Shown here one piece after another: positions 2,837 to 63,838 of a stretch of 64,000 nucleotides of DNA (position 1 is the first letter of the stretch; every line of letters starts with the position of its first letter). The stretch comes from a virus, in the IMG/VR virus record IMGVR_UViG_3300042479_001767, positions 23,465 through 87,464 of that record. One strand, 5' to 3'. The notes beneath the pieces are model-generated. The model was not told where the DNA came from. It saw only the letters and a program-made list of their open reading frames with translations, and did not search any database. The position numbers were made by a program, and so were the translations under genes.

Positions 2837-5650
2837 ATGTGGAATTTTAGCATTCATAAAAAAACTGTAAAGGCAATGGAAGCCTTTGATGTCTTAAGTA
2901 GTGAGGGTATCGATTGGACTGGTTCATTCCAGGATACATTTAAAAAATACAATTTTAACTCTCATGATAAAATGCCTACCGTTTATGACCTAATAAATTT
3001 TATTAAGTATGCTAAAAATACAAGAATCTTGGATATTTATTCAAGAGATAAAAATAAAGGTTCTGATCTTAGATGGTTTTGCAAACAATTAATTACGTTT
3101 GTAGTTGATCAGCTTAGGCACACTGGATCTCCAAACGCAGACACACTTATCATTACTAATTTCTTAGCTCAATGTGCAAAAAATTATGAAACTGATAATC
3201 CTTATAATAAAATCGAAATTGGCACACCAGTTTCAAGTGAAAAAGCAATGACAATGTCAATGAAAAATTTAATTTCAATGAGATACGAAACATTGAATTT
3301 ATTAACTGCAAATAATATTAACATTGAAAATAGTTGCATGATGTACATCATGAGAGGTGACGATGTCAAAAATCATGGTGTTAATGCAGATGATTATGCT
3401 AGAAATCAGATAATAGAACGTGCAATTGATAAATATCCTAAACTTGGATATTTTAAATCTTTAGACAGTGTTTTATTTTATTTGAAAAGTGACATAGCCA
3501 CAAAAGATAATTTGTTAGAAATTTCTGATTATCTTAAATCATTTTCTCTTTCTGGTTTGAAATTTACAGATTTATTTTCTTTTGTAGATGGATTGACAGG
3601 ATCTAGTTTAGATGGAAAATCTATTAAAGATATTATTTATAATGTCCAGACTGATGATCAATTAGAAATATATCTTTATCTAAGAAACAAAGTGGTTAAA
3701 AATAATAATGATTATGAAATAACCAAATCTCTTTTAGAGATTGTTTATAAATTTTTATCTTCATTTTACTTAACTAAATCTAATATCGAAAAATTATTAA
3801 AAGATGATATGTTTGTTGAATATTGTCAAAATCAAGGCGAAAATATAAAAGATCTATGGTTGTATAAGGGTTTTTCAACAGTTGAAGTAATGCAAAACTA
3901 CTTAACAAAAAATCCTGAAAAAATTAAGAATTTCTCAGAAGATGCATTGGCAAGATTAAACGCTACATCACTCCAAAATATTAATCAATCAGCAATTGAA
4001 GCTCAACAATCAATTTTAAAAGATGGACTGTCTTTATTACAAAATGCTATAGACACAAATGTAATTAAGAAACTAGATCCTTTTGTAAGAGATTTTAATC
4101 GTGATTACTCATCAGAATATAAAAAGCCTGAAAAACCTTCAAATGCATCTCCAGAAGAAATGAAAGAATATGAATTGCAGGTTTCTGCAGCAAAAATCTT
4201 TACAGAATGGCAAATTAGTTATTTAGACAGAATGGAGCAAGAAAGATTATTTACATCTATTTCTAAAGAAGATTTGGAAAAATATGCATCTAATATGATA
4301 ATTCTAGAATTTGATGCAAATCAATTAAAAGTTTTTTTAGAATCAAAAAATATTACCAAATTTCAAATTCAAGGTGTAGATTTTGTAAGTGGATTATGGA
4401 GAGGTTTATTTGTACCAAGGTTTCCTACACCTTCAGGACAACCTGTTCCAGCAATTGTAATTAGAACTGATGCATATGACTCTTTAGAACATCATAAACA
4501 GCTATCAGAAAATTTAGGATTTGAAGCTTTTAGGTTTACAGAATCTACTAGAAGACATGAAATTGCACATGCATTACAATATCTTGCTGTTGGTGATGTT
4601 ATGCTAATGGAACCGCAAGAATTAAATCCAGAGCTTACTGAAGGTGAAGCTTATATTATGGATCCGGCAGAATTGTATGCAAGAGTACATGGAGATATTC
4701 CTTATTTATATAATTTATTTGATTCTAGAATTAGAAATCTAACTGTTTCTAAAAAAATATATGAAGCTGCTAAAGAACAATGGATTCACGACATTGTTAA
4801 TGAAAAAATACACTTAATGTCTGGTGGTACTAATCTAAGAAGATTAATGATGCAAGATGAAACACCAGAATTTAGAAAAGAAAATTTTGGTAAATTAAAA
4901 AAATCTGATGGAACAGAAATTGAACTACCAGACCCTCTTGAGGCTATATCAAAAATTCTTGCAAGGCAAAGAATAAAACTTGAAATGATTTTTCATGATT
5001 TATTTACAGTTGCTGATAAAAGAGAAAAAAGAAAAGGTTTGATTAGCAAAAAGAATAGACTTAAAAAACAATTAGAAAGTCTTCCTGAATACGAATATTT
5101 AAAAAGAATTAATCTCGAGAAGGAACTTTATGAAGCAGAAACTGATTTGATAAAAGTTGGTCAAGAACTTATTGTTGATGTTGAAAATGTATCTACTTCT
5201 GTTTTAAAAGGTTATTTGAAAGATTATTTTACAAAAATAAGCAATGCTGTAGCTGAAGGTTTATTAGGACCCGATGTCCTGAATGTAGATGATCCTGATA
5301 GACCTAAATCTTCAGAAAAACCATCCGTCGAACCTGAATTGCCTACAGCTTCCGATATTTCTGATATTACTGAATTTATGATTGGACAATCTAAACCAAT
5401 TCCTGGTGGAAGAAAAATTGATGAAATTATTCCATCATTCATGGGCAAGGCTTTACCAGCTGATTCTTGGACTTGGGAAAAGGGGACGGATCCAAATAGT
5501 CCAGAAAACAGAAAAAGACCTAAGGGAAATTTTCCAGGAATAGAGCCTGTAAAGCCAATGCCTCAATCTAAAATAACTATTGATGCAGATGATCCATTCA
5601 AGACAGATAAAACTGCGTCAGTCTATAATCATAACAGATCAAAAAGATAA
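2837..5650 (+). CDS. Large protein with HEXXH metallopeptidase-like motif
   Basis: A 937-residue protein of unknown family. Around residues 570-620 it has RRHEIAHAL (His574, Glu575, His578) and then DPAELYARV with a possible third ligand Glu612, which fits a zincin-type metallopeptidase or a similar fold found in large phage polyvalent proteins. The N-terminal 550 residues are helical. The C-terminal 130 residues are Pro/Ser/Asp rich and look disordered. No signal peptide is present. It is alone on the plus strand between two leftward operons and its end overlaps the convergent sigma-factor gene by 12 bases. It may be a virion protein carried into the cell, but this is inference. The start is uncertain: ATG 2837 lacks a clear ribosome binding site, and ATG 2876 is an alternative. 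Confidence 0.7.
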   Translation: MWNFSIHKKTVKAMEAFDVLSSEGIDWTGSFQDTFKKYNFNSHDKMPTVYDLINFIKYAKNTRILDIYSRDKNKGSDLRWFCKQLITFVVDQLRHTGSPNADTLIITNFLAQCAKNYETDNPYNKIEIGTPVSSEKAMTMSMKNLISMRYETLNLLTANNINIENSCMMYIMRGDDVKNHGVNADDYARNQIIERAIDKYPKLGYFKSLDSVLFYLKSDIATKDNLLEISDYLKSFSLSGLKFTDLFSFVDGLTGSSLDGKSIKDIIYNVQTDDQLEIYLYLRNKVVKNNNDYEITKSLLEIVYKFLSSFYLTKSNIEKLLKDDMFVEYCQNQGENIKDLWLYKGFSTVEVMQNYLTKNPEKIKNFSEDALARLNATSLQNINQSAIEAQQSILKDGLSLLQNAIDTNVIKKLDPFVRDFNRDYSSEYKKPEKPSNASPEEMKEYELQVSAAKIFTEWQISYLDRMEQERLFTSISKEDLEKYASNMIILEFDANQLKVFLESKNITKFQIQGVDFVSGLWRGLFVPRFPTPSGQPVPAIVIRTDAYDSLEHHKQLSENLGFEAFRFTESTRRHEIAHALQYLAVGDVMLMEPQELNPELTEGEAYIMDPAELYARVHGDIPYLYNLFDSRIRNLTVSKKIYEAAKEQWIHDIVNEKIHLMSGGTNLRRLMMQDETPEFRKENFGKLKKSDGTEIELPDPLEAISKILARQRIKLEMIFHDLFTVADKREKRKGLISKKNRLKKQLESLPEYEYLKRINLEKELYEAETDLIKVGQELIVDVENVSTSVLKGYLKDYFTKISNAVAEGLLGPDVLNVDDPDRPKSSEKPSVEPELPTASDISDITEFMIGQSKPIPGGRKIDEIIPSFMGKALPADSWTWEKGTDPNSPENRKRPKGNFPGIEPVKPMPQSKITIDADDPFKTDKTASVYNHNRSKR

Positions 5651-6220
5651 AAAATCTTCTCCCAAGATAACTTTGATATTTCCCAAGGCTCTCTGCAATC
5701 TTTTAGAGAAAGAACTTTGGGAAATATTTAGCTTTAACGATGCTTCTTCTTGATCTAAACCTTCAAAAAAATAAAGCTCAATTGCTTCTTTTTGTTTTTC
5801 ATTTAACTTATTGATTGCAGAATGTAGTGAAATAACAGTTTCAATCCTGTTGAATGGATCAGTGGAATGTTCTTCAACAACTACATCGCTTTCATAGTCA
5901 GCATGATCTAAATATTTATCGACACAAGATCTATATAAGTTGATATCTATTCTTGTTGATAAAAAATATGAGAAATAAGTAAGATTTGGATTGTACTGAT
6001 CAACTATTTTTTTAAGAACTAATAAAGATTCTTGAAGCATATCTTCTCGATATGGTGACAATTTCAATTCTTTTTGAATACATCTTTGTATTGCACAAAT
6101 AAATAATGGCTTGTAGAAATCATATAATTCTCCTAAAGCAGAGCCATCATTGTCTTTTACTTTTGAAATAAGTTCATTTATATATTCGTAGCGATCTTCA
6201 TACACAAAAATTTTATACAC
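5639..6220 (-). CDS. RNA polymerase sigma factor, sigma-70/ECF-like
   Basis: About 193 residues with two sigma-70 segments. Region 2-like sequence lies at about residues 27-95 (ELYDFYKPLF, then a segment around REDMLQESLLVL). Region 4-like sequence lies at about 138-185 (LNEKQKEAIELYFFEGL and a helix-turn-helix around EEASLKLNISQSSFSKRL). The short linker and size match ECF-type or phage late sigma factors, which direct RNA polymerase to a class of phage promoters. It is last in a leftward operon and overlaps the HolA-like gene by 8 bases. The start is GTG at 6220. A second GTG at 6205 sits exactly six bases after TATAAA (6212-6217), so a shorter leaderless product is possible. Confidence 0.75.
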   Translation of the reverse strand: MYKIFVYEDRYEYINELISKVKDNDGSALGELYDFYKPLFICAIQRCIQKELKLSPYREDMLQESLLVLKKIVDQYNPNLTYFSYFLSTRIDINLYRSCVDKYLDHADYESDVVVEEHSTDPFNRIETVISLHSAINKLNEKQKEAIELYFFEGLDQEEASLKLNISQSSFSKRLQRALGNIKVILGEDFLSF

Positions 6221-7219: not shown

Positions 7220-8332
7220 CTACTCCATTGGGAACATTATATGATTGAAATTATCTGATTGCAAAATACATATTGTATATGAATTGAAATCATAAAATTT
7301 AGCACTTATATTTTCTTGATTTATGACTTCCAATATTTTCATAAAATGATTTGTAAGATAAGAAACATTCAAATCTTCTAATTCTTCATCAAAAGTAATC
7401 TTGTCTGCTGCACCACCAGAAATATCACCTGAACTTGTTAAGATAATTTCTTTATTTTTAGTTGATAAATTAAACAAGTGAGAACCTGAAATATTGTTTA
7501 TGAACTTCAAAGATTTTAGAAATTCACTTTTAGATACATCTATTGTTGTGATATATTTTGAATCAAAAAATCTCTTGAATCCATTATGAACACTTTGGTA
7601 TGAGTTTACTTCAAGATTGGTGCAAAAATAATTACCATTATTACGGATAATTAGTTTGTTTTTATGTATTGAAAATTTTGAATTACTGTCAACAAAGTTT
7701 AATGACAACTCAGCTTGATTTTTACTTAGTAAGAAGGACTGTTCATTTTCATATTTTTTGCCATAAACAGAAATTCTGTGCTTATCTGAAGATTGAGCGT
7801 TGAACTTATTTTCAGAAATAAAGAACATTATAGATGAATATGGGTGCTCTTCAAAATCTGGAGCACATGAAAATGATGTAAACTTGATAGCATTATGAAA
7901 ACTAGTTGAGTCATATTTTACGAAATCAATATTATCATTTATAAAAAATTCATTAGATATTTTATTTTCAAGGCTGTCTGCTTTTGATGTTTTTAACGAT
8001 ACTCTGGTTTTTTTGTTTCCAAAAACCAATTGATTGTCTGACTCAACGAATGCGAATTGAATTTCATCAGTTGGAAAGTTCGTAAATGCATTTGTAAAAA
8101 TATTACAATCTATAGCAAAATCAATAAAATCATCATCAAAATCACATAGGTAAGTATATGCTGCAGAAACACCAGTACTTAGGTATATGAACAACTTATT
8201 GTCATGTGCATGAAAAATAAGACTATCGCCATTGATACTCTTATTTTCACGAGTTGATAATTTCAGTTTATCAATTTTATTGAATAACTGAAACTTCTCT
8301 AAGTGCTCAGACTTTTTAAGTTTAAATTTCAA
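7220..8332 (-). CDS. dnaN: DNA polymerase sliding clamp, DnaN-like
   Basis: 370 residues, the usual length of the bacterial beta clamp (about 366). Two family landmarks can be seen: SSDKHRISVYGKK in the second domain, matching the beta-clamp ATDGHRLA segment, and the C-terminal HIMFPME, matching the clamp C-terminus VVMPMRL that closes the binding pocket for polymerase. The protein is otherwise very diverged and is Asn/Lys/Phe rich. It would form a ring on DNA and tether DnaE. It sits between the PurA/PurZ-like gene and the HolA-like gene. The start is an unusual TTG at 8332 with AGGGG 8 bases upstream, and it overlaps the TGA stop of the preceding gene. Confidence 0.65.
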   Translation of the reverse strand: MKFKLKKSEHLEKFQLFNKIDKLKLSTRENKSINGDSLIFHAHDNKLFIYLSTGVSAAYTYLCDFDDDFIDFAIDCNIFTNAFTNFPTDEIQFAFVESDNQLVFGNKKTRVSLKTSKADSLENKISNEFFINDNIDFVKYDSTSFHNAIKFTSFSCAPDFEEHPYSSIMFFISENKFNAQSSDKHRISVYGKKYENEQSFLLSKNQAELSLNFVDSNSKFSIHKNKLIIRNNGNYFCTNLEVNSYQSVHNGFKRFFDSKYITTIDVSKSEFLKSLKFINNISGSHLFNLSTKNKEIILTSSGDISGGAADKITFDEELEDLNVSYLTNHFMKILEVINQENISAKFYDFNSYTICILQSDNFNHIMFPME

Positions 8333-9324
8333 TGTAACTGCCCCTGGAATTCAATTTCAATACCTGGATTATATTTCGTAATCTGATTCATAAGACAAAG
8401 CATAAATGAACCTTCATCATCAACAAAATGTAATTTACCATCTTGATACCAGTCCCAGCCATTTTCAATCTGAGCTAAAACATCCATTTTGTTTACAATT
8501 AATTTAGTGATTCCATTCATTTGGCAAGCAGTATTTACTTCATCAACATTTAGCCAATCTATTTGTCTTGGTCTACCAGTAGTGGCTCCATATTCTTGAC
8601 CAACCTCACGCAGTTTTTCAAATCGCTCGTCGTGTTTTTGGTATCCTTTAGCTCCAACATAGGTAGAATAACATTTGATAACCCCGACAACATTCCGAAC
8701 TTGCTTAAAATTGAAACCATTATTTAATACTGCTCCTACTCCTGTATTTGACGATGTGACATAAGGATAATCGCCAAAGTCAACATCAAGCCAATAACCT
8801 TGAGCTCCTTCAGCTAAAAATTTCTTTGGGGAAGAATAAATCAAACTGTGCATATCAACAAGATATGGTTCTAATTCAGGAACATCTTTGGCACGAATTC
8901 CAGTACGGGCATACTTGTCTCTGTAACAAGGTCCGTTTCCAGTGCGAGTTGTTCCAATTTTTGTGTCTTTGGAATCTTCGTCAATGTGTTCTTGGGTAAT
9001 TATATGTGCGTTTTCTGCTATTTTAAGGATTGATGTGTCAAACCCAAATCCTTTAAGATACCCAAGTTCGTCAAATAATTTTTGCGTATTGATAACACAA
9101 CCATTACCGATGACACTAGGAATACCATGCAGAATACCACAAGGAACAAGATGCGTAACAATTTTCTCTCCATTGAGGTAAATTGTATGACCCGCATTTC
9201 CGCCTCCATTGAAACGGATAACGTAGTCATATTCACCAGATAAAGCCATTTGATTGGCTATTTTTCCTTTGCCTTCATCCCCATACTGCATACCGATAAC
9301 TACATCAACAATTGAAGTTTCCAT
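8329..9324 (-). CDS. purA: Adenylosuccinate synthetase, short archaeal/PurZ-type
   Basis: 331 residues from ATG 9324 (a GTG at 9330 is also possible). Members of this family join aspartate to IMP (PurA) or to dGMP (PurZ, the first step to 2-aminoadenine DNA). Motifs from the N-terminus: MQYGDEGKGK with the PurA catalytic Asp16, GGGNAGHT with His46, IGTTRTGNGP, EGAQGYWLDVDFGDYPYVTSSN, GATTGRPRQIDW (aspartate loop) and NKMD (guanine recognition, so probably GTP-using). It is about 100 residues shorter than E. coli PurA and matches the compact archaeal form from which PurZ/PurZ0 are thought to derive. Known PurZ proteins have Ser where this has Asp16 and lack the NKxD motif, so the substrate cannot be assigned. 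It lies between sigma-H-like and clamp genes, overlapping the clamp start. Confidence 0.8.
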   Translation of the reverse strand: METSIVDVVIGMQYGDEGKGKIANQMALSGEYDYVIRFNGGGNAGHTIYLNGEKIVTHLVPCGILHGIPSVIGNGCVINTQKLFDELGYLKGFGFDTSILKIAENAHIITQEHIDEDSKDTKIGTTRTGNGPCYRDKYARTGIRAKDVPELEPYLVDMHSLIYSSPKKFLAEGAQGYWLDVDFGDYPYVTSSNTGVGAVLNNGFNFKQVRNVVGVIKCYSTYVGAKGYQKHDERFEKLREVGQEYGATTGRPRQIDWLNVDEVNTACQMNGITKLIVNKMDVLAQIENGWDWYQDGKLHFVDDEGSFMLCLMNQITKYNPGIEIEFQGQLH

Positions 9325-9368
9325 ACGCACATTCTACTTCATAGCAGAGATGTTAGCAAGAGTTGTAT

Positions 9369-10040
9369 TTATTTTTTGTTCAGTGAATCGTTCTCATCCT
9401 TTTTGTATTGAGTGTACACTTCATTAGCTTTTTTACGAATTCTAGTAAGAGCATTATCAACACATTTGGGAGGAACATTTAATGAATTTGAAATTTCTTT
9501 GTAAGATGAATTCATTCCATATTCATTGAAAATTTCAGCTTCTAAAGGAGTTAGTTTATCAATTAGTTTCTTGGAAGTTAAATCATATTCTTCTCTTCCA
9601 ATAATATCAAGAACTAAATCGCACTCAGGAGATTCATCATATGGATTTTTCTTTTCAGGAATAAAATCAGCCAAAGTTTGGAGATTTCCATCGTCACCTA
9701 AAATAATAGGTGCATCTAAAGAAATAGAATCATTCAACACTGAATTTTTCATTCTTTTAGCACTTGCGATTGCTGTTGCTAAATGACGTTTACAGACTAG
9801 ATTGACACAAAAGTTTTTAAAAGTTGTATCTTTGGTTGGATCATAGGAATTAACAGCTTTGTAAACTCCCAACCGCAATTCTTGCATTACGTCTTCTCTA
9901 TCAGCACCTACTATAAAGTAATGGTTGCAGATTTTTTTAAGATCAGGCTCAACCATTTTCAAGAGGTAATTAAAAGATTTACTTTCTCCTCTTTTAGCTT
10001 TTCTAACGATGTCTACTATTCTTGGGTCTTCGGTTGCCAT
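9369..10040 (-). CDS. RNA polymerase sigma factor, SigH-like
   Basis: 223 residues. Region 2 contains FIVGADREDVMQELRLGVYK and FKNFCVNLVCKRHLATAI, very close in pattern to the sporulation sigma-H family (FLIGADREDIVQEGMIGLYK). It is followed by a SISLDAPI segment, also typical of SigH. Region 4 lies at about residues 160-210 (KLTPLEAEIFNEYG, a helix-turn-helix around SYKEISNSLNVPPKCVDNAL). It would reprogram RNA polymerase. The C-terminus is highly charged. The gene lies between dnaX and the PurA/PurZ-like gene on the same strand, 37 bases after dnaX in the direction of the ATG, with CGGGA shortly upstream of the start codon. Confidence 0.85.
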   Translation of the reverse strand: MATEDPRIVDIVRKAKRGESKSFNYLLKMVEPDLKKICNHYFIVGADREDVMQELRLGVYKAVNSYDPTKDTTFKNFCVNLVCKRHLATAIASAKRMKNSVLNDSISLDAPIILGDDGNLQTLADFIPEKKNPYDESPECDLVLDIIGREEYDLTSKKLIDKLTPLEAEIFNEYGMNSSYKEISNSLNVPPKCVDNALTRIRKKANEVYTQYKKDENDSLNKK

Positions 10041-56950: not shown

Positions 56951-57190
56951 CTAGTGGAATTCTTGGAAATAAGGACATTTTTGATAGCCAGAACCATCTC
57001 TGACCCATCCATTTCCTTTACATTTATTTTTGCCTTTTCCTAAGCATTCACAAACTCCAATTGGATTTCCATTTCTTATGATAATATTATCGATTTTTGC
57101 TTGTTCTTCTTGAGTAAGATTAAGAAATTCTTCTACTGATCCTACTTTGAATCCAGCATTTTCCAATCGATTTTTCTTATCTTCATCCAT
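56951..57190 (-). CDS. Small protein with HTH-like N-terminus and cysteine-rich tail
   Basis: 79 residues from ATG 57190; the frame opens earlier, but this ATG overlaps the end of the upstream gene. The first 45 residues (KKNRLENAGFKVGSVEEFL, then LTQEEQAKID) match the N-terminal helix pair of antitoxin/transcriptional regulator proteins with an R-L-x-x-A-G-F-x-V-G...EFL pattern. The tail CECLGKGKNKCKGNGWVRDG then YQKCPYF holds four cysteines that may bind zinc. A DNA-binding role is plausible, and it could regulate the accessory cluster. Confidence 0.55.
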   Translation of the reverse strand: MDEDKKNRLENAGFKVGSVEEFLNLTQEEQAKIDNIIIRNGNPIGVCECLGKGKNKCKGNGWVRDGSGYQKCPYFQEFH

Positions 57191-57413
57191 TATTGAATCT
57201 TTCAAACCGCTTTTCAATTTGAAATTTTTCATCGAGAGGTAATACAAGCAAATCAGAAACTTGCCAATCATTAAGTGTTTGCTTATTGATGACAGTTTTA
57301 AATTCTAAATTACCATCAACCAATCGCCAATATTTCACAACATTCCCATTTGTATGTGAAACTTCAGAACCTTGTTTCAACTCATAAAACAAATCAAAAT
57401 TTATATTAAACAT
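57183..57413 (-). CDS. Small hypothetical protein, paralogue of the gene at 59357
   Basis: 76 residues. LFYELKQGSEVSHTN, KYWRLVDGNLEFKTVINKQT and SDLLVLPLDEKFQIEK line up with the 71-residue gene at 59357 (VIEKLNDGYFLIV, TVWRIKNNELQNRVKHKS, IKYLILPMQADYSFKK). It is thus a second repeated small gene in this accessory region, on either side of the Tad2-like array. AGGA lies 5 bases before ATG 57413. Confidence 0.6.
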   Translation of the reverse strand: MFNINFDLFYELKQGSEVSHTNGNVVKYWRLVDGNLEFKTVINKQTLNDWQVSDLLVLPLDEKFQIEKRFERFNNG

Positions 57414-57420
57414 AATTATC

Positions 57421-57825
57421 CTAATCTTCCTCTTCGTTATCAGAATCTTCTAGTGCTGCAGCTAAATCTGCAGGCACTACATCCCACATAAAACCTTTGT
57501 CTTCGAGAGTGTCTGTGTTCCAAGGTTCTAATTCTTCAAGCCAAACACGATAATCTTCATAAGTATCATCATATTCGTCTTGCAAAGTTTCAAAATCTAG
57601 TGAATATTCTTTACCATAAAACTTCATTGCTTTGTCAAAAATACTGCAATCGCAATCAATTTCAAGATAAGCATAACCTTCTTCATTCAAAGGTGTTCTA
57701 CCAGTTCCAAGATATGAAAAATCACTAATGATTTCAATAAGATTTAAGTCATTGATAAGTTCAAGATCAACTTTCCAGTAATCATGACGATAGCAATCAA
57801 TTGTTTGAATTGTAATTTTTTCCAT
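57421..57825 (-). CDS. Hypothetical acidic protein
   Basis: 134 residues, very acidic (YDDTYEDYRVWLEELEPW, SDNEEED). Some DNA-mimic anti-defence proteins have this composition, but no such family is recognised. AGAGGA lies 7 bases before ATG 57825. It lies downstream of the Tad2-like array in the same direction, after a 17-residue frame. Confidence 0.55.
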   Translation of the reverse strand: MEKITIQTIDCYRHDYWKVDLELINDLNLIEIISDFSYLGTGRTPLNEEGYAYLEIDCDCSIFDKAMKFYGKEYSLDFETLQDEYDDTYEDYRVWLEELEPWNTDTLEDKGFMWDVVPADLAAALEDSDNEEED

Positions 57826-57861
57826 AATTATTTCCTCTTATTTTTCTGAAACTTCTGAATC

Positions 57862-57915
57862 TTAGTCAGCAGTAATATCAATGTCAAAAGATAAATTTAA
57901 TTTGTATTTAGCCAT
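57862..57915 (-). CDS. Tiny 17-residue frame after the Tad2-like array
   Basis: MAKYKLNLSFDIDITAD, with a perfect GGGAGG six bases before ATG 57915. That site lies inside the last codons of the preceding array gene, as at the other array junctions. It resembles the first residues of small phage proteins (a K-Y-x-V/L-x-L-x-F-D pattern) and may be a truncated remnant. Confidence 0.35.
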   Translation of the reverse strand: MAKYKLNLSFDIDITAD

Positions 57916-58138
57916 TGATTACCTCCCAATCATCATCTTTCATAATATCATGAAAGATTTCTTGAAGTTTGTATTGAGCCTCTTGTGGTGAATCAACATT
58001 TCTTAAATACATCCAACAAAGAGCTGGTGAATAATGAACCCAAGTGCCTACGTATTCAATATAAGCACCAGGAGACCATTTAAGCATACGGATTTTCTTG
58101 CCTTGTTTCAGCAATTGTAATGCTTCTAATCCACTCAT
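57908..58138 (-). CDS. Tad2/DUF2829-like protein 6 (last of array)
   Basis: 76 residues. It has MSGLEALQLLKQGKKIRMLKW at the start (read in two parts: SGLEALQLLKQGKK and RMLKW), a variable middle, and DDDWEVING at the end. This is the Tad2 (DUF2829) layout: an EAL-x-x-L-x-x-G-K-K helix, a conserved Trp after R-x-x-x-W, and a terminal D-D-W-E-I/V strand. Tad2 binds the gcADPR signal of Thoeris defence and so prevents activation of ThsA. The ATG overlaps the stop of the upstream gene (TAATG). The next tiny frame again uses its last codons as ribosome binding site. Confidence 0.7.
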   Translation of the reverse strand: MSGLEALQLLKQGKKIRMLKWSPGAYIEYVGTWVHYSPALCWMYLRNVDSPQEAQYKLQEIFHDIMKDDDWEVING

Positions 58139-58434
58139 TATCCATCTACCTTTTTGTTATCGTCAACAGTATCTTCTGTATCCCAATAATCAATGTCCCA
58201 ATCATCAGCAATAACATCACCAGGTACTAAATCAAGACCCACTGATGCCAATTCATATTTACTTCCAATTTCATCTGGTTCATCTAGATGATATACAGAC
58301 ACAAAAAAATTGTCATGATATACATACACAAAACAATTGTCATCTTTGTCGTAATACATATATTTTTGTTCCCAGGCAGCTCTTGTGATTGGTTTGCCTT
58401 CCATTAAAGCATCTAATACTTCAGATAATTTCAT
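58138..58434 (-). CDS. Tad2/DUF2829-like protein 5 (longest in array)
   Basis: 98 residues. KLSEVLDALMEGKPITRAAW at the N-terminus and GDVIADDWDIDYWD near the end fit the module. A middle insertion contains several Tyr and Phe (FVYVYHDNFFVSVYH), and there is an extra 15-residue acidic tail. It is the most diverged member of the array by length. The ATG 58434 sits in the last codons of the upstream gene. Confidence 0.65.
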   Translation of the reverse strand: MKLSEVLDALMEGKPITRAAWEQKYMYYDKDDNCFVYVYHDNFFVSVYHLDEPDEIGSKYELASVGLDLVPGDVIADDWDIDYWDTEDTVDDNKKVDG

Positions 58435-58640
58435 TCTAATATCTCCCAATCATCACTCAAAAATTCAGTAGCATCAACAACTCTATTAGTCCAAATAAGT
58501 CTTCCGCCAAAGCCCCATCTAATTTCATTGTGTCGATCTATAGCTCCGAGCATCTGAAACAAATACTCACCTTTTTTCCAATGAAGCCTTCGTACTTGAT
58601 AACCTTTACGAATTGCTTTAAGTGCTTTTATTCCAGTCAT
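58431..58640 (-). CDS. Tad2/DUF2829-like protein 4 (shortest in array)
   Basis: 69 residues. Module signature MTGIKALKAIRKGYQVRRLHW (in two parts: MTGIKALKAIRKG and VRRLHW), then KKGEYLFQM, and FLSDDWEILE at the end. The middle is about 10 residues shorter than in its neighbours. GGGAGA lies 7 bases before ATG 58640, within the WEI codons of the upstream gene. Confidence 0.7.
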   Translation of the reverse strand: MTGIKALKAIRKGYQVRRLHWKKGEYLFQMLGAIDRHNEIRWGFGGRLIWTNRVVDATEFLSDDWEILE

Positions 58641-58873
58641 TCTACTATCTCCCAATCATCCATTAGAAAGTCATCTAATATCTCGTCTGTCAGGAGTACT
58701 GTATCTTCTAGATGATGTAAATCTTCTCCACGATATTGATTGTATTTTGGTGAAGGGGCAATTTTACATCCATCACGAGTCACATAAGTCGCTAAATACT
58801 CGCCATCACGCCAGTGCTTACGCTTGACTTTTTTGTTTTCTCTTAGTGCTATTAGTGCTTCGAATCCAGTCAT
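58637..58873 (-). CDS. Tad2/DUF2829-like protein 3
   Basis: 78 residues. MTGFEALIALRENKKVKRKHW (in two parts: MTGFEALIALREN and VKRKHW), then RDGEYLATYVTRDG, and FLMDDWEIVE. RDGEYL after the Trp matches the W-x-G-x-G-M-F/Y-L segment of DUF2829 well. Start ATG 58873 overlaps the upstream stop (ATGA). Confidence 0.72.
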   Translation of the reverse strand: MTGFEALIALRENKKVKRKHWRDGEYLATYVTRDGCKIAPSPKYNQYRGEDLHHLEDTVLLTDEILDDFLMDDWEIVE

Positions 58874-59118
58874 TCCACTATCTCCCAATCATCCATTAGA
58901 AACTCACCAGCATCTATAGCATCAAAAATACTCATGTAATCAGCAAATTTAGGGTCATCAGGTACGTGCTCTGGAGCTGGTGAAATTGAATCACACTCAA
59001 CACGAATTGACCAAAGATTATCAGAGAAATAAGCTTTACACTTTTCATCTGGTTCCCATGATTCACGTCTAAGTGTAAATCCAGCTTGTAATTTGTCTAA
59101 AGCTTCTCTACCAGTCAT
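58870..59118 (-). CDS. Tad2/DUF2829-like protein 2
   Basis: 82 residues. MTGREALDKLQAGFTLRRESW (in two parts: MTGREALDKLQAG and LRRESW), then a middle with SIRVECDSISPAPEHVPDD, and FLMDDWEIVE. ATG 59118 lies 10 bases after GGGA in the upstream gene's end. Family signature as in the neighbours. Confidence 0.7.
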   Translation of the reverse strand: MTGREALDKLQAGFTLRRESWEPDEKCKAYFSDNLWSIRVECDSISPAPEHVPDDPKFADYMSIFDAIDAGEFLMDDWEIVE

Positions 59119-59360
59119 TCTAATATTTCCCAATCTTTCTTAAGTATATCATCAATTAATCCCTCTGCTATTTCTTGATTAAACATATTCGTCCAAGGGG
59201 TAATGGGATTTAAATCTGGTATTCTTGGAAACTCTTGTGCTTGATGAGAAAAATAACAACCATCAGATGTGAAATAAAAGTGCCAATCAGGATTTCTCCA
59301 ATTGACACATCTTATTTTCTTTCCTTTAGACAATTCTATTAAAGCTTCTATTCCGGTCAT
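59115..59360 (-). CDS. Tad2/DUF2829-like protein 1 (first of the tandem array)
   Basis: 81 residues. MTGIEALIELSKGKKIRCVNW (in two parts: MTGIEALIELSKGKK and IRCVNW), then NPDWHFYFTSDG and ILKKDWEILE. ATG 59360 overlaps the stop of the 71-residue gene (ATGA). It heads a run of six related genes that each begin in the last codons of the one before. Confidence 0.68.
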   Translation of the reverse strand: MTGIEALIELSKGKKIRCVNWRNPDWHFYFTSDGCYFSHQAQEFPRIPDLNPITPWTNMFNQEIAEGLIDDILKKDWEILE

Positions 59361-59572
59361 TCTTCATTTAACTTCTTAAAAGAATAATCTGCTTGCATAG
59401 GTAAAATTAAATATTTTATTGTCATCCAATTTGTTGTTCCTGATTTATGCTTTACTCTGTTTTGCAATTCATTGTTTTTGATTCGCCAAACAGTCAGATT
59501 TCTTTCATCTTTTACAATCAAAAAATATCCATCATTTAGTTTTTCAATAACATCAGAAGGAATAGGCAGCAC
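59357..59572 (-). CDS. Small hypothetical protein, paralogue of the gene at 57183
   Basis: 71 residues. DVIEKLNDGYFLIVKDERN, LTVWRIKNNELQNRVKHKS and IKYLILPMQADYSFKKL. It matches the 76-residue gene at 57183 in order and spacing, so the pair brackets the array. It precedes the array and overlaps it by four bases. Function unknown. Confidence 0.6.
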   Translation of the reverse strand: MLPIPSDVIEKLNDGYFLIVKDERNLTVWRIKNNELQNRVKHKSGTTNWMTIKYLILPMQADYSFKKLNEE

Positions 59573-59841
59573 TAGTCAACCTCATAGTTTTTCCTGAAAG
59601 TTTCTCTGACATTTTTATCCCAAAGCAACTCAGACGCAAAACCAATAGTACCGGAATCAAAATGAACCCATACAGTTTTACCATCATCAGAGAGACTAAT
59701 TTCAATGATATCGTCATTATTATATTGAAACTCTTCACAAAAAATAGATGCTATTTTAGATAAATAAGCTTTAAATCTAGTAAAACTGTATATTCGACCC
59801 CTAACATATTCTTCGCCATAAATTTTTGGATCAGTTTGCAT
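59572..59841 (-). CDS. Small hypothetical protein
   Basis: 89 residues, unrecognised, alpha/beta, with DIIEISLSDDGKTVWVHFDSG as a probable beta hairpin (in two parts: DIIEISLSDD and TVWVHFDSG). It overlaps the upstream membrane protein gene by 11 bases and abuts the 71-residue gene. It belongs to the same polycistronic string as the Tad2-like array. Confidence 0.55.
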   Translation of the reverse strand: MQTDPKIYGEEYVRGRIYSFTRFKAYLSKIASIFCEEFQYNNDDIIEISLSDDGKTVWVHFDSGTIGFASELLWDKNVRETFRKNYEVD

Positions 59842-60019
59842 AAGTGTACCTCACCAATAAACTAACAATTAATGATAACATTGATATAATAATTAAGAGC
59901 TTAGTATTCATTTCAATAAAAGATTTGTCTTTTTCAAAAATAATTTTATATACCCCAGTCATAAAGTAGCAAACTAAAATAAGACATATAAAAGATAATG
60001 CTAATAAAAGAATAGTCAT
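59831..60019 (-). CDS. Small two-span membrane protein
   Basis: 62 residues with two hydrophobic helices (LLLALSFICLILVCYFM at about 4-20, and LLIIISMLSLIVSLLV at about 41-57) and a short charged loop between. AGGG lies 7 bases before ATG 60019. It is the first gene after the consensus promoter at 60038-60065, so it heads the transcript carrying the Tad2-like array. It may be a membrane anti-defence or lysis-related protein; no family recognised. Confidence 0.6.
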   Translation of the reverse strand: MTILLLALSFICLILVCYFMTGVYKIIFEKDKSFIEMNTKLLIIISMLSLIVSLLVRYTYAN

Positions 60020-60037
60020 AAAAAAATCCCTATAAAC

Positions 60038-60065
60038 AGTATACTGCGTATAAGGATTTTGTCAA
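60038..60065 (-). promoter_or_regulatory. Strong promoter of the Tad2-like array operon
   Basis: Minus strand: -35 TTGACA (60060-60065), 16-base spacer, -10 TATACT (60038-60043), about 12 bases upstream of the ribosome binding site of the gene at 60019. Confidence 0.8.
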
Positions 60066-60076
60066 GAAAATATATC

Positions 60077-60265
60077 TTACACAAGTTGCCAAGTGTCTAC
60101 TTTTACATCTTCATCATTTAGATTTTTCACTACCCACTTTGTTTTGCTGTCAAATTTCTTCATAATTTTGTTGTCTGTAAACTTTATATAAACAAAATCA
60201 GAGTCAATAGGTCTTTTTGCAATAGAGCCATTCTTCACAGATGCCCACACATCATAAAAAGTCAT
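60077..60265 (-). CDS. Diverged Tad2/DUF2829-like protein
   Basis: 62 residues. MTFYDVWASVKNGSIAKRP at the N-terminus and VKVDTWQLV at the end follow the module plan (x-x-F-x-D-V/A-L-x-x-V/L-K-x-G, then D-x-W-x-L/I-V), but the central Trp is replaced and the glycine segment is missing. AGAGG lies 9 bases before ATG 60265. It may be a reduced or inactive copy. Confidence 0.45.
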   Translation of the reverse strand: MTFYDVWASVKNGSIAKRPIDSDFVYIKFTDNKIMKKFDSKTKWVVKNLNDEDVKVDTWQLV

Positions 60266-60306: not shown

Positions 60307-61176
60307 CTAACCTTTCTTGTGCTCTTCTTGTATTTGGTCTACTTCTGCTATAACATCAACAGCTTCCCAATCATCTGCCAGCATATCTGTGTAATTGATA
60401 GTGAAAGATTTAGCAAATTTACCAACACCCAAATGAGGCAACCAACTTCTTCTTCTAATAGTCAATCCTTGATTTAAATCTTCTAAAACATCTTTGATTG
60501 TTCTGTTAGGTAAAATAACCCAATCTTCTGCAAAAAGATCCTCCACAGTGAAAATTGCTTTAGAATTGTCATATTTATCTGGTGGAAATAAATAAATATT
60601 AGGATTGCCTTTTCTTGTGACAATTTTACCATGATTGATCATTTTTAGAGCCCATGTGATATCGGGCTTAAATTCTATATTATTTTCTTTAGCAAAATCA
60701 TCAAAATTGCTTCCAATATATTTATTTCCAAAACTATCAAAAATTTCGGAATCAACAGCATAGGGTAAATAATCTTCACCTGGATCTAAATAAGGAGAAC
60801 CATTCTTATCCAATTTTGCTGCTTTCCAAGATTTATTTTTACTTTCATAGTGTGTGAAATCTTTGACTTCTTGACCCCACTGTTTAGTTTCATAATAATA
60901 CTTATATATTTTACCATCAACATGAGCAAAACCATATTTAGCCCAATTAGTGCCATTAGAGCGAGGATCTTCTTCTGCTAATAAATCATGGTAGATATAA
61001 CACCCATGAGTTTTCATCATGTTTATAGCTGCTGGTGTATTGTATTCTGCATTTTCGATATTGAAATCATAAAATTTGCTTACATTTTTGACATTCATAT
61101 TTATTCCAGTACGTTTTTCAAACTCACGAATTTTATTGTGATAATAATCTTTTTGACTTTTAGGCGATTTGTCCAC
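60307..61176 (-). CDS. Fusion protein with two C-terminal Tad2/DUF2829-like domains
   Basis: 289 residues from GTG 61176, chosen because GGAGG lies exactly six bases upstream; ATG 61182 directly abuts that site. The N-terminal 170 residues are unrecognised (NIENAEYNTPAAINMMKTHG, KYGFAHVDGKIYKYYYETK). The C-terminal part has two module copies in tandem: WALKMINHGKIVTRKG to VEDLFAEDWVILP, and IKDVLEDLNQGLTIRRRSW to TDMLADDWEAVD. The second keeps the R-x-x-W motif, the first lacks the Trp. DUF2829 domains fused to other domains are known from large phages. The N-terminal domain may add a second binding or catalytic function. Confidence 0.6.
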   Translation of the reverse strand: MDKSPKSQKDYYHNKIREFEKRTGINMNVKNVSKFYDFNIENAEYNTPAAINMMKTHGCYIYHDLLAEEDPRSNGTNWAKYGFAHVDGKIYKYYYETKQWGQEVKDFTHYESKNKSWKAAKLDKNGSPYLDPGEDYLPYAVDSEIFDSFGNKYIGSNFDDFAKENNIEFKPDITWALKMINHGKIVTRKGNPNIYLFPPDKYDNSKAIFTVEDLFAEDWVILPNRTIKDVLEDLNQGLTIRRRSWLPHLGVGKFAKSFTINYTDMLADDWEAVDVIAEVDQIQEEHKKG

Positions 61177-61405
61177 GAGCATCCTCCAATGCAGAAATTA
61201 ATTTATCAAGTTCTTCTTTATCTAAAACAACTGAATCTGAGTAAGCGAAACCATCAAAAAGAATTTTCAATCTTTTTTTCCAATTCAACTTACCATCATT
61301 AAAACCATAATTCCAAAGTGAAATATCTACAGTTTTTAATTCTACATCGGGGCGTACATGCAGAGAATGGCACAAACAATCACAGTTTATTATGGTAGTA
61401 TTCAT
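61160..61405 (-). CDS. Small hypothetical protein
   Basis: 81 residues, unrecognised. CDCLCHSLHVRPDVELKTVD near the N-terminus has three cysteines and a histidine. The C-terminal half is helical (LDKEELDKLISALEDARGQ). TGG-TATGAT ends six bases before ATG 61405, so it is probably leaderless and starts the leftward accessory transcript. Its end overlaps the fusion gene by 17 bases. Confidence 0.6.
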   Translation of the reverse strand: MNTTIINCDCLCHSLHVRPDVELKTVDISLWNYGFNDGKLNWKKRLKILFDGFAYSDSVVLDKEELDKLISALEDARGQIA

Positions 61406-61495: not shown

Positions 61496-63838
61496 ATGTT
61501 TAATTTTTTTAAGAAAAAACTACCTAGCGATTTTGAGCAGGTACAAGAAAAGGGCAAGGAATTAAGTGAAATTTTTTACAACCCAAACCAAGAACAACCA
61601 GATTTTAATTTAATTGATAAAGTAAAAAAAAGCAAATTCCAAGATTTTGAAGTAGCATCATTTGCAAGTTTTTTTGAAAAGCTTGAATTGATACCTACTG
61701 TTGATCTTGGTGATGTAAATTTGAAGATTAGAACTACAAATCCTTCAGCACCAATTGATGCAGATTTATGTCAAGTTTGGATGAGAAGAACTTATACAAA
61801 TCCAACAAATGGACAAACCACAGAACAATGGCTTAGTTGGGTTCCTAATGATGATGTAGCTAAAAAATATTTCAAGTTTAGTTTATTCTCTGGAGAAACG
61901 CAAACTTTCAATTTTGATGTAAGCACATTTGATGTTGGAAAATATGATAGTTTTAGATTTATCTTCTTCACTTACCATTGGGACGTACTTGCAGATCAGA
62001 CAGCTGAAAATGTTTCATTTGAAATTACTACAAAACAGAAAAGAGTAAAAACTCCATTTGTCGAAATTTTATCCAACAAGATTCAAGACCCAGGTGTTGA
62101 TGGAAAATTGCATATTCCATATGTAATTAAGATGCCAGCTAAGACATTTACTACTTGGGGCGGGTGGTTCTTGTTAGCTAAAGGAGCTTCAATGTTTCAA
62201 CAGCCTTGGATTCCATATGCTAAAAAGAATGGCGCAGATGTTCTTCCTGACGGTGCAACAATGATAGCTGATGGTCCTGATCCATATTGGTATTCCGAAG
62301 GCGAAATTGTTTTTGATTATCCTTCTGTAAGTGGTATTCACAATTTACAATTTGGTTTGTTTGATTATAATTGGAAAATGCAAAACTGGGTTTATCCAGG
62401 CATTAATATTGAAGTCGGTGGAGATAATTGGGTTACTAAATGCCCAGATTCTAAATTGCCACCAAGACTAAGAGTTATCAATGGACAATTGGTAAAGCTA
62501 AGTGGCACAGGCGGAACTGGTGGGACTATATCTAATTGTACACCTTATAATATTTATGAAGGCACAACTGGAGCCAATGCAATCACAGCTATAAGAGGTG
62601 GAAATTACGGCAATCAATATTTGTGGTCAGAAGCACCTGATTATAATCGTACTGGATATTTTAGTTCATTGAAGTTTCTTGGACATAAGTTCTTAAGACT
62701 TTTATTTAACCCAGATAAGTATATTGCTGACAAGATTTACAGAAATAGAATTCAAGACACCATTGGTAAAATGCTTACTGCTGGATGTCATGTGATAGCT
62801 GGACCTCAACATATTCCATCAGGCAATGATTTGTATGAAAAATCTGAAGCTTTTTACAAGCTTGTTGAATTGATGGCTAACAATTGGAAGGGGTTACCAG
62901 TTTGGGTTAGCATTACAAATGAACCTAATGACATTGGTGACTGGAGTTTATGCAAGCCTATCTTTGAAAAGGCAATAACAATTTATCGTTCCATTGATGC
63001 AGATGCATTTATTATTTGTCCAACTTCAAAGTGGTCAAAAGAAAATACAACACCAGAAGCAAATGATTTAATCGATCCTGTATTAGTTGATGCATATGCT
63101 TATCATGCATACAACAATGCTAATGAGGTTGTTCCAAATCTTAAACCATTATTAGATAAAGGCGTAGCTGTAATTGTTGAAGAGTATGGCTGTGGAGATG
63201 CTGAATGGCAAAAAAGTATTAACATTGAAATGCAAAAGCTTTCAAAATTATATCCAAACCTTATAGCGTTTGCTACTTGGGCTTGGACAAGAGCAGGGGA
63301 AGATGCCTGTCCAATGGTTGAGGATGGGAATCTTGCTAATGTCAAATTAACTGCAGTAGGTCAAATGCAAGCGAAGGATTTGAAAACTTGGGACAGTGGT
63401 AACTTTATTACTGAAGGTGGTGGAACTCAACCAAATCCACTTCCTAATCCACAACCCGTACCTGTACATGTAGATGCTTACACAAAGGCTGAAATAGATA
63501 CAAAATTTACTGAATCATTAGCTTTAATAAATGAAGATTTTAAATTACATGTTAAAACTTCTTTAGAAAGTTATGATGTTCTTCAAGATGCAGAAACAAA
63601 GCAATTTTTTGAATCTGCTGTAGTAAATTTAGAACTTGTAGATATTGCTGAAATTGATGCAAAATATACAGATGTGAGTGAAGTTTCAGTTTTGTCAGGT
63701 AAAGAAATTGCTAAGTTCAGAGCTGATTTATATAACAAAGCTCTTAGTGATTATAAGCTTATGCTTAAAGCACCAACAGTAGCAAAATTGTCTGCTTATT
63801 TAGCCAAGTTTATTGAATATATCAAACCACCTGTCTAG
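61496..63838 (+). CDS. GH5-like glycoside hydrolase in a tail-fibre-type protein
   Basis: 780 residues. The N-terminal about 330 residues are beta-rich, with a repeated layout of two similar sandwich-like domains (DLCQVWMRRTYTN...; KTFTTWGGWFLLAKG...). The catalytic domain (about 360-640) has VWVSITNEPNDIGDW, where Glu476 would be the acid/base of clan GH-A, and VIVEEYGCGDAEW, where Glu562 or Glu563 is the nucleophile, plus YAYHAYNNA. GH5 enzymes cut beta-glucans, mannans or related polysaccharides. A Pro/Asn linker and DAYTKAEIDTKF, typical of phage fibre C-termini, follow. I infer a virion depolymerase that acts on host surface polysaccharide. AGGAG lies 9 bases before the ATG. Confidence 0.75.
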   Translation: MFNFFKKKLPSDFEQVQEKGKELSEIFYNPNQEQPDFNLIDKVKKSKFQDFEVASFASFFEKLELIPTVDLGDVNLKIRTTNPSAPIDADLCQVWMRRTYTNPTNGQTTEQWLSWVPNDDVAKKYFKFSLFSGETQTFNFDVSTFDVGKYDSFRFIFFTYHWDVLADQTAENVSFEITTKQKRVKTPFVEILSNKIQDPGVDGKLHIPYVIKMPAKTFTTWGGWFLLAKGASMFQQPWIPYAKKNGADVLPDGATMIADGPDPYWYSEGEIVFDYPSVSGIHNLQFGLFDYNWKMQNWVYPGINIEVGGDNWVTKCPDSKLPPRLRVINGQLVKLSGTGGTGGTISNCTPYNIYEGTTGANAITAIRGGNYGNQYLWSEAPDYNRTGYFSSLKFLGHKFLRLLFNPDKYIADKIYRNRIQDTIGKMLTAGCHVIAGPQHIPSGNDLYEKSEAFYKLVELMANNWKGLPVWVSITNEPNDIGDWSLCKPIFEKAITIYRSIDADAFIICPTSKWSKENTTPEANDLIDPVLVDAYAYHAYNNANEVVPNLKPLLDKGVAVIVEEYGCGDAEWQKSINIEMQKLSKLYPNLIAFATWAWTRAGEDACPMVEDGNLANVKLTAVGQMQAKDLKTWDSGNFITEGGGTQPNPLPNPQPVPVHVDAYTKAEIDTKFTESLALINEDFKLHVKTSLESYDVLQDAETKQFFESAVVNLELVDIAEIDAKYTDVSEVSVLSGKEIAKFRADLYNKALSDYKLMLKAPTVAKLSAYLAKFIEYIKPPV

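What the first reader, a model, noticed from the sequence alone, without database searches (positions are those of the whole stretch)
57908..60265. Tandem array of Tad2-like (DUF2829) anti-Thoeris domains
Six adjacent small genes (57908 to 59360) plus a diverged copy (60077) share the layout EAL-x-x-L-x-x-G-K-K, R-x-x-x-W, and terminal DDWEI. By pattern this is the DUF2829/Tad2 domain, known from phages to sequester the cyclic ADP-ribose-type signal of Thoeris defence. Established: Tad2 exists as single small proteins and as fusions. New here: a run of at least six sequence-diverged copies in one operon under a strong promoter. Inference: the copies may cover different signal molecules (different gcADPR isomers or cyclic oligonucleotides), making a broad-spectrum signal sponge.
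Basis: partly seen in the sequence, partly recalled or inferred. Interest (0 to 1): 0.92.

Follow-up and report, generated by a model that had tools for sequence, protein, structure and literature searches.

The report
Tandem cassettes of Tad2-fold phage proteins
An uncultured phage carries a head-to-tail run of six related but very different small genes with the fold of Tad2, a phage protein that soaks up bacterial immune signals; other phages carry runs with different members and swap single genes, which looks like an exchangeable kit against bacterial defences, although no copy has the sequence marks of the Tad2 proteins tested so far.

Summary
Six adjacent minus-strand genes (57908-59360) all match Pfam PF11195 Tad2-like (21-27 bits, E 5e-4 to 5e-6). 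A profile of them finds only solved Tad2/AcrIIA7 proteins in the PDB, and a good AlphaFold2 model of one copy matches only Tad2 structures.

The anti-Thoeris label goes too far. All seven solved Tad2/AcrIIA7 sequences share two loop motifs (GWNGK[G/N]M and an S-x-[S/T]-D turn before the last DW). All six copies, and every member of the other runs of three or more examined, lack both.

What is new is the organisation. Nine related viral loci have the same slot with different sets of Tad2-like genes, and unrelated GC-richer phages have their own runs. One gene (58637-58873) is 83-91% identical in DNA to copies in those phages, with similarity ending at or near the gene's ends. Junctions are built so that one gene's last codons (DDWEI-x-E-TGA) carry the next gene's ribosome site and start. 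Best reading: a swappable array of divergent Tad2-fold counter-defence proteins, probably small-molecule sponges. Ligands are unknown.

The parts
59115..59360 (-). Tad2-like copy A (81 aa), first of the array; its ATG overlaps the stop of the 71-aa gene by 4 nt
   Evidence: PF11195 24.4 bits, E 4.4e-5; nearest relative L015, 50%
58870..59118 (-). Tad2-like copy B (82 aa from ATG); 4-nt overlap with A
   Evidence: PF11195 21.0 bits, E 5e-4; relatives in most of the related loci
58637..58873 (-). Tad2-like copy C (78 aa); 4-nt overlap with B; also found in unrelated phages
   Evidence: PF11195 27.3 bits; AF2 pLDDT 86.5; Foldseek hits 1-11 all Tad2; 91% DNA identity to L007 over 225 bp
58431..58640 (-). 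Tad2-like copy D (69 aa); 4-nt overlap with C
   Evidence: PF11195 25.8 bits; 91% DNA identity to L015 over 229 bp, junction to stop
58138..58434 (-). Tad2-like copy E (98 aa); 4-nt overlap with D; acidic tail after DDWDI
   Evidence: PF11195 25.4 bits; 96.8% DNA identity to L053/L075 over 285 bp
57908..58138 (-). Tad2-like copy F (76 aa), last of the array; 1-nt overlap with E
   Evidence: PF11195 24.0 bits; nearest relative L010, 79%
60307..61182 (-). 291-aa protein with two short Tad2-like domains in its C-terminal half; conserved upstream edge of the island
   Evidence: PF11195 33.7 bits, 2 stretches; related proteins in the other islands, two-domain region about residues 175-281
60077..60265 (-). 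possible degenerate Tad2-like protein (62 aa); doubtful
   Evidence: no Pfam hit; home HMM E 0.004 / 3e-4
59357..59572 (-). conserved 71-aa gene just before the array; not Tad2-like; a paralogue lies at 57183-57413
   Evidence: family of 9 in the islands; hhalign against the Tad2-like profile probability 0.3%
59572..59841 (-). conserved 89-aa gene, upstream edge of the variable slot
   Evidence: present in 9 of 10 islands
57421..57825 (-). conserved 134-aa gene, downstream edge of the variable slot
   Evidence: 58-82% identity in related contigs
57862..57915 (-). truncated remnant (17 codons) of a small gene that is full length after the array in L011, L015, L072 and L075
   Evidence: sequence, similarity 57838-57916, family o8

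Best explanation
This is a variable slot in a phage operon, filled with six divergent proteins of the Tad2 fold that are made together from translationally coupled genes. Each gene works as a cassette: its last codons (GAT GAT TGG GAG ATN NNN GAA TGA) encode the conserved DDWEI-x-E end and also give the next gene a Shine-Dalgarno-like GGGAG and an overlapping ATG, so a cassette can be added, lost or swapped without new regulatory DNA. Most likely the proteins are counter-defence proteins that bind small nucleotide-type immune signals, and the copies differ in the middle segment because they serve different ligands. Shown here: the fold family, the array, the coupling signals, turnover between related phages, and single-cassette exchange with unrelated phages. 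Inferred: that they are counter-defence proteins, that they bind small molecules, and that copies differ in ligand.
For: PF11195 matches for all six. PDB profile search: all matches are Tad2 or AcrIIA7 entries, best E 6.5e-7. AF2 model of copy C, pLDDT 86.5; Foldseek top 11 all Tad2, probability 1.00 and TM about 0.6, including 8smf with gcADPR and 9eib with hisADPR, then nothing above probability 0.25 among those listed. The slot is syntenic in nine related loci but holds different sets, e.g. one Tad2-like gene in L011, two in L009, four in L010, seven in L015. Single cassettes stand out from their neighbours: C 91% over 225 bp to L007, 84.6% over 246 bp to L008 and 83% over 259 bp to L070, in contigs of 47-51% GC whose only other matches to the window are Tad2-like genes and a distant dUTPase; D 91% over 229 bp to L015; E 96.8% over 285 bp to L053 while the next genes are 79%. 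C has GC3 0.29-0.35 in L007/L008/L070 whose long ORFs have GC3 0.51-0.54. Of 61 distinct Tad2-to-Tad2 junctions, 48 are 4-nt overlaps and 53 have a Shine-Dalgarno-like string (part of the sample was picked by this motif). Known Tad2 proteins are signal sponges with differing ligands.
Against: No copy has the GWNGK[G/N]M or S-x-[S/T]-D motifs found in all solved Tad2/AcrIIA7 proteins. No known defence or counter-defence neighbour was identified in the window's island. Only one copy was modelled; tetramer and ligand were not modelled. Host unknown. Small phage proteins often turn over fast without being counter-defence.
Confidence: 0.52

Rival explanations
1. The copies use the Tad2 fold to bind different host proteins (defence enzymes or other host factors) rather than small molecules, in the way that AcrIIA7, a DUF2829 protein, was first described as a Cas9 inhibitor.
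For: AcrIIA7 and BtTad2, annotated as type II CRISPR inhibitor, are in the same family; AcrIIA7 has the DUF2829 domain and DUF2829 proteins occur next to AcrIIA7 homologues (PMC6739104). Loss of the ligand-loop motifs and strong divergence suit protein targets.
Against: AcrIIA7-type proteins also carry the two loop motifs that the array lacks, and the solved family members with known ligand are sponges.
Confidence: 0.2
2. The array gives dose: several copies that bind the same signal, making a larger sink.
For: A sponge acts by stoichiometry (PMC12043709), so more protein gives more capacity; the genes look translationally coupled.
Against: Copies are only 25-43% identical, most have their nearest relative in a different phage, and related phages keep different subsets; simple dose would favour recent near-identical duplicates.
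Confidence: 0.08
3. They are host-takeover or regulatory small proteins of the phage with a Tad2-like fold and no role in counter-defence.
For: The fold also occurs in very short form in the conserved 291-aa protein; PHROG 643, the best PHROG for copy C, is labelled transcriptional regulator.
Against: Rapid turnover and exchange between unrelated phages is typical of defence-related genes; all solved relatives are counter-defence proteins.
Confidence: 0.12
4. They are true Tad2: each binds gcADPR-type signals and blocks Thoeris.
For: Same Pfam family and fold.
Against: Loop motifs of the characterised proteins absent in all six; profile scores near the cut-off.
Confidence: 0.08

Closest known systems
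SPO1 Tad2 (gp34.65; PDB 8sme, 8smf, 8smg, 8wje)
   Same: Fold (copy C model, Foldseek E 1.6e-3, probability 1.00) and family profile; size; EAL-L-G-R-x-x-W start and DW-I/V end
   Different: Single gene; has GWNGK-M and SQTD motifs, absent here; 17-20% identity in the structural alignment
ModTad2/MoTad2 of a Myroides prophage, His-ADPR sponge (PDB 8v3e, 9eib)
   Same: Best PDB profile match (E 6.5e-7); same fold
   Different: Single gene; has the loop motifs; ligand known
AcrIIA7 / BtTad2 (PDB 8kbi, 9kzr)
   Same: Same family; PMC6739104 reports DUF2829 proteins near AcrIIA7 homologues, a hint that clusters exist
   Different: Canonical loop motifs; not described as runs of many divergent copies
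CDN-binding Tad2 proteins (PMC12043709)
   Different: No equivalent insertion was identified in the array copies (middle segments 43-57 residues)
Operons of several anti-CRISPR genes in phages (own knowledge)
   Same: Run of small counter-defence genes with fast turnover
   Different: Those are usually unrelated families; here one fold, diverged, in cassettes

Membership tests
Pfam PF11195 Tad2-like | profile match over most of the domain | tested here: met
   all six, E 5.5e-6 to 5e-4, 3 of 6 over the 25-bit cut-off
Pfam PF11195 Tad2-like | Tad2 fold | tested here: met
   copy C only: pLDDT 86.5, Foldseek top 11 all Tad2; other copies by profile
Tad2 (anti-Thoeris sponge) | GWNGK[G/N]M loop after the first strand | tested here: not met
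   present in the solved Tad2/AcrIIA7 sequences, absent in 6 of 6 copies
Tad2 (anti-Thoeris sponge) | S-x-[S/T]-D turn before the final A-x-DW | tested here: not met
   present in the solved sequences, absent in 6 of 6 copies
Tad2 (anti-Thoeris sponge) | homotetramer with two gcADPR pockets between protomers | not testable with these tools
   only monomers can be predicted here
Tad2 (anti-Thoeris sponge) | binds gcADPR or His-ADPR and rescues phage from Thoeris | not testable with these tools
   needs binding and plating assays
AcrIIA7 | inhibits type II CRISPR-Cas | not testable with these tools
   needs an assay; sequence motifs shared by AcrIIA7 and Tad2 are absent
[quoted passage not shown]
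   middle segments 43-57 residues; strand assignment for five copies not modelled
Cassette array of Tad2-like genes (as described here) | three or more adjacent same-strand Tad2-like genes | tested here: met
   six in the window; runs of 3-6 in 16 further loci, several of them duplicates of one another; several confirmed with Pfam itself

The most novel reading that the evidence does not exclude
Phages of several lineages carry self-propagating cassette arrays of Tad2-fold sponges with different, partly unknown ligands, traded one gene at a time; because Tad2 pockets form between protomers and the first helix, along which the dimers interlock, is conserved in all copies, coupled copies might also assemble into mixed tetramers with composite pockets.
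Probability: 0.3. Interest if true: 0.85.

Novelty: new variant of a known kind. Interest (0 to 1): 0.62.

Why it matters
If the copies bind different signals, each array is a readout of the immune signals that the phage's hosts use, including signals not yet known, and a ready set of binders to identify them. The cassette design would also explain how phages gain and lose sponges quickly, which matters because sponges can be turned against the phage (Panoptes senses sponges that take up cyclic dinucleotides, PMC12657218). The motif-lacking clade widens the Tad2-like family beyond the proteins tested so far.

Tried and rejected
AF2 of the 291-aa protein failed (pLDDT 39.9), so nothing is claimed about its fold. 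The 71-aa paralogue family (59357, 57183) was tested as a distant Tad2 relative and rejected (hhalign probability 0.3%). Copies D, E and the 291-aa protein have no match in 50,697 named phage records, and copy C only 34% matches in Erwinia phages at E 6e-3. Relatives by DNA polymerase are all below 60% identity, so host and taxon stay unknown. Runs of canonical Tad2 were looked for: 80 of 80 loci had one copy, but these were picked by canonical peptides and seen only with up to 3 kb flanks. The junction pattern in bacterial genomes gave 7 loci, none of which appears among those with two or more adjacent Tad2-like domains. Excess of nonsynonymous change in copy E (5 of 5 codon differences) is suggestive but too few to claim positive selection. 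The papers that first described Tad2 and its ligand range are not held, so the pocket description was taken only from a review. Whole-genome download was not available.
Full report
What is there. The window is bases 23465-87464 of an 87,464-base uncultured virus record. On the minus strand, 57908-59360 holds six adjacent small genes, here called A to F in the order of transcription. Each matches Pfam PF11195 (Tad2-like, formerly DUF2829) along almost its whole length with 21.0 to 27.3 bits; three pass the curated 25-bit cut-off and three lie just below. A scan of the whole record with the same family finds these six and nothing else. A profile of the six against all PDB sequences returns seven sequences up to E 10, all of them Tad2 or AcrIIA7 entries: Myroides Tad2/ModTad2 (E 6.5e-7), SPO1 Tad2 (6.2e-5), BtTad2 (0.0013), AcrIIA7 (0.029), SptTad2 (0.4). 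AlphaFold2 on copy C with 40 relatives gives mean pLDDT 86.5; Foldseek against the PDB returns Tad2 structures in places 1 to 11 with probability 1.00 and TM about 0.6, and nothing else above 0.25 among the matches listed.

The 291-aa gene at 60307-61182 carries two short Tad2-like domains in its C-terminal half (33.7 bits) and was missed. The 62-aa gene at 60077 is marginal at best. The claim of a strong promoter is not supported beyond one 11/12 site at 60065-60038.

Anatomy of a cassette. In all six the Trp of the R-x-x-W block is residue 21 and a (D/K)DW block closes the domain; the segment between ranges from 43 to 57 residues and carries nearly all the difference. The junctions read, for example, gatgattgggagatagtagaATGA: the codons for the DDWEI-x-E end hold GGGAG eight bases before the next ATG, and that ATG overlaps the TGA by four bases. 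This string occurs four times in the window, all in the array, and never in shuffles. Over all loci collected, 48 of 61 distinct Tad2-to-Tad2 junctions are 4-nt overlaps and 53 have a Shine-Dalgarno-like string; many loci were collected with this motif, so the fraction is biased, but in the loci found by protein alone (window, L007-L015) I count 12 of 19. What follows, by inference, is that a copy inserted head to tail is translated at once.

Turnover in one slot. Nine related loci carry the same operon (conserved 81-, 89- and 71-aa genes before, 134-, 106-, 63- and 143-aa genes after), and the Tad2-like content between differs: one in L011, two in L009, four in L010, seven in L015, with related genes in different order. 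Pfam itself confirms 11-12 matches in the two larger records G009 and G010 and 8 in G004. Phages of other lineages, mostly of 45-62% GC, also have runs of three to five.

Exchange of single genes. Copy C is 91% identical in DNA to L007 over 225 bp, 84.6% to L008 over 246 bp and 83% to L070 over 259 bp. In an alignment with flanks the identity to L007 and L008 falls to background at or near the start codon and at the stop codon. These contigs have 47-51% GC, and their only other matches to the window are Tad2-like genes and a distant dUTPase. GC3 of the cassette there is 0.29-0.35 where long ORFs have 0.51-0.54, so the gene looks foreign in them. Copy D is 91% identical to L015 over 229 bp and copy E 96.8% to L053 over 285 bp, while neighbouring DNA in the same comparisons is about 70% and 79%. 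Since junctions resemble each other, exact break points inside them cannot be placed. The six copies have different nearest relatives: A and D in L015, B in L009, C in L007, E in L053/L075, F in L010; the flanking genes are mosaic too.

Not canonical Tad2. The solved Tad2 and AcrIIA7 sequences have GWNGK[G/N]M after the first helix and strand, and an S-x-[S/T]-D turn before the final A-x-DW. The review PMC12043709 places the gcADPR pocket at the beta1-beta2 loop, beta3-beta4 loop, beta4, the beta4-alpha3 loop and helix alpha3; assigning the two motifs to these loops is my inference from sequence order. None of the six copies has either motif, nor does any of 70 domains in runs of three or more (not de-duplicated). 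Eighty loci of canonical Tad2 are all single-copy, but that sample was chosen by canonical peptides. So the array genes are members of the Tad2-like family by profile and fold, but fail the sequence test for the tested Tad2 proteins. That lowers the claim that they are anti-Thoeris proteins. It does not exclude that they work as sponges with other ligands: the known family already covers gcADPR (SPO1), His-ADPR (Myroides; PMC13299392) and cyclic dinucleotides (PMC12043709).

Function. The most likely reading is a set of counter-defence proteins, probably binding small signals, diversified in the segment between the constant ends. Purifying selection on A, B, C, D and F (dN/dS about 0.13-0.40) suggests that each is kept. 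Copy E differs from L053 at five of the first 88 codons, all amino-acid changes between residues 40 and 70, which hints at change in the variable segment but is too little to prove selection. Protein-binding roles as first described for AcrIIA7 are the main rival.

Novelty. The held papers that I read describe Tad2 as a single gene, and no paper on runs was found, apart from a remark that DUF2829 proteins occur near AcrIIA7 homologues (PMC6739104). The primary Tad2 papers were not available, so prior notice of such runs cannot be excluded. I rate it a new variant of a known kind.

Noticed in passing
window 8329-9330: Phage adenylosuccinate synthetase (PF00709, 285 bits; NCBIfam PurZ model 121 bits, below its cut-off of 300) with the GDEGKGK motif kept; possible link to modified purine metabolism.
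   Followed up: partly
window 57862-57915: Remnant of a small gene after copy F: it stops after 17 codons, while L011, L015, L072 and L075 have it at about 70-75 aa.
   Followed up: partly
window 61496-63838: 780-aa protein with a GH5 cellulase-type domain (PF00150) on the plus strand beside the operon; 83% identical in L048.
   Followed up: no
window 9369-10040 and 5639-6220: Two sigma-70-family factors, one closest to sporulation SigH models, plus DnaX-, DnaE- and RecA-like proteins: a phage with much of its own replication and transcription control.
   Followed up: partly
window 57183-57413 and 59357-59572: A second duplicated small-protein family in the same operon (conserved W-R, W and L-x-L), unrelated to Tad2-like by profile; function unknown.
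   Followed up: partly
window 58138-58434 against L053 129-410: Copy E differs from L053 at five of the first 88 codons, all nonsynonymous and all in the middle segment.
   Followed up: partly
L070 4449-7757: Tad2-like cassettes interspersed with a ThyX-like gene and a dUTPase directly before the terminase gene in a GC-richer phage.
   Followed up: no
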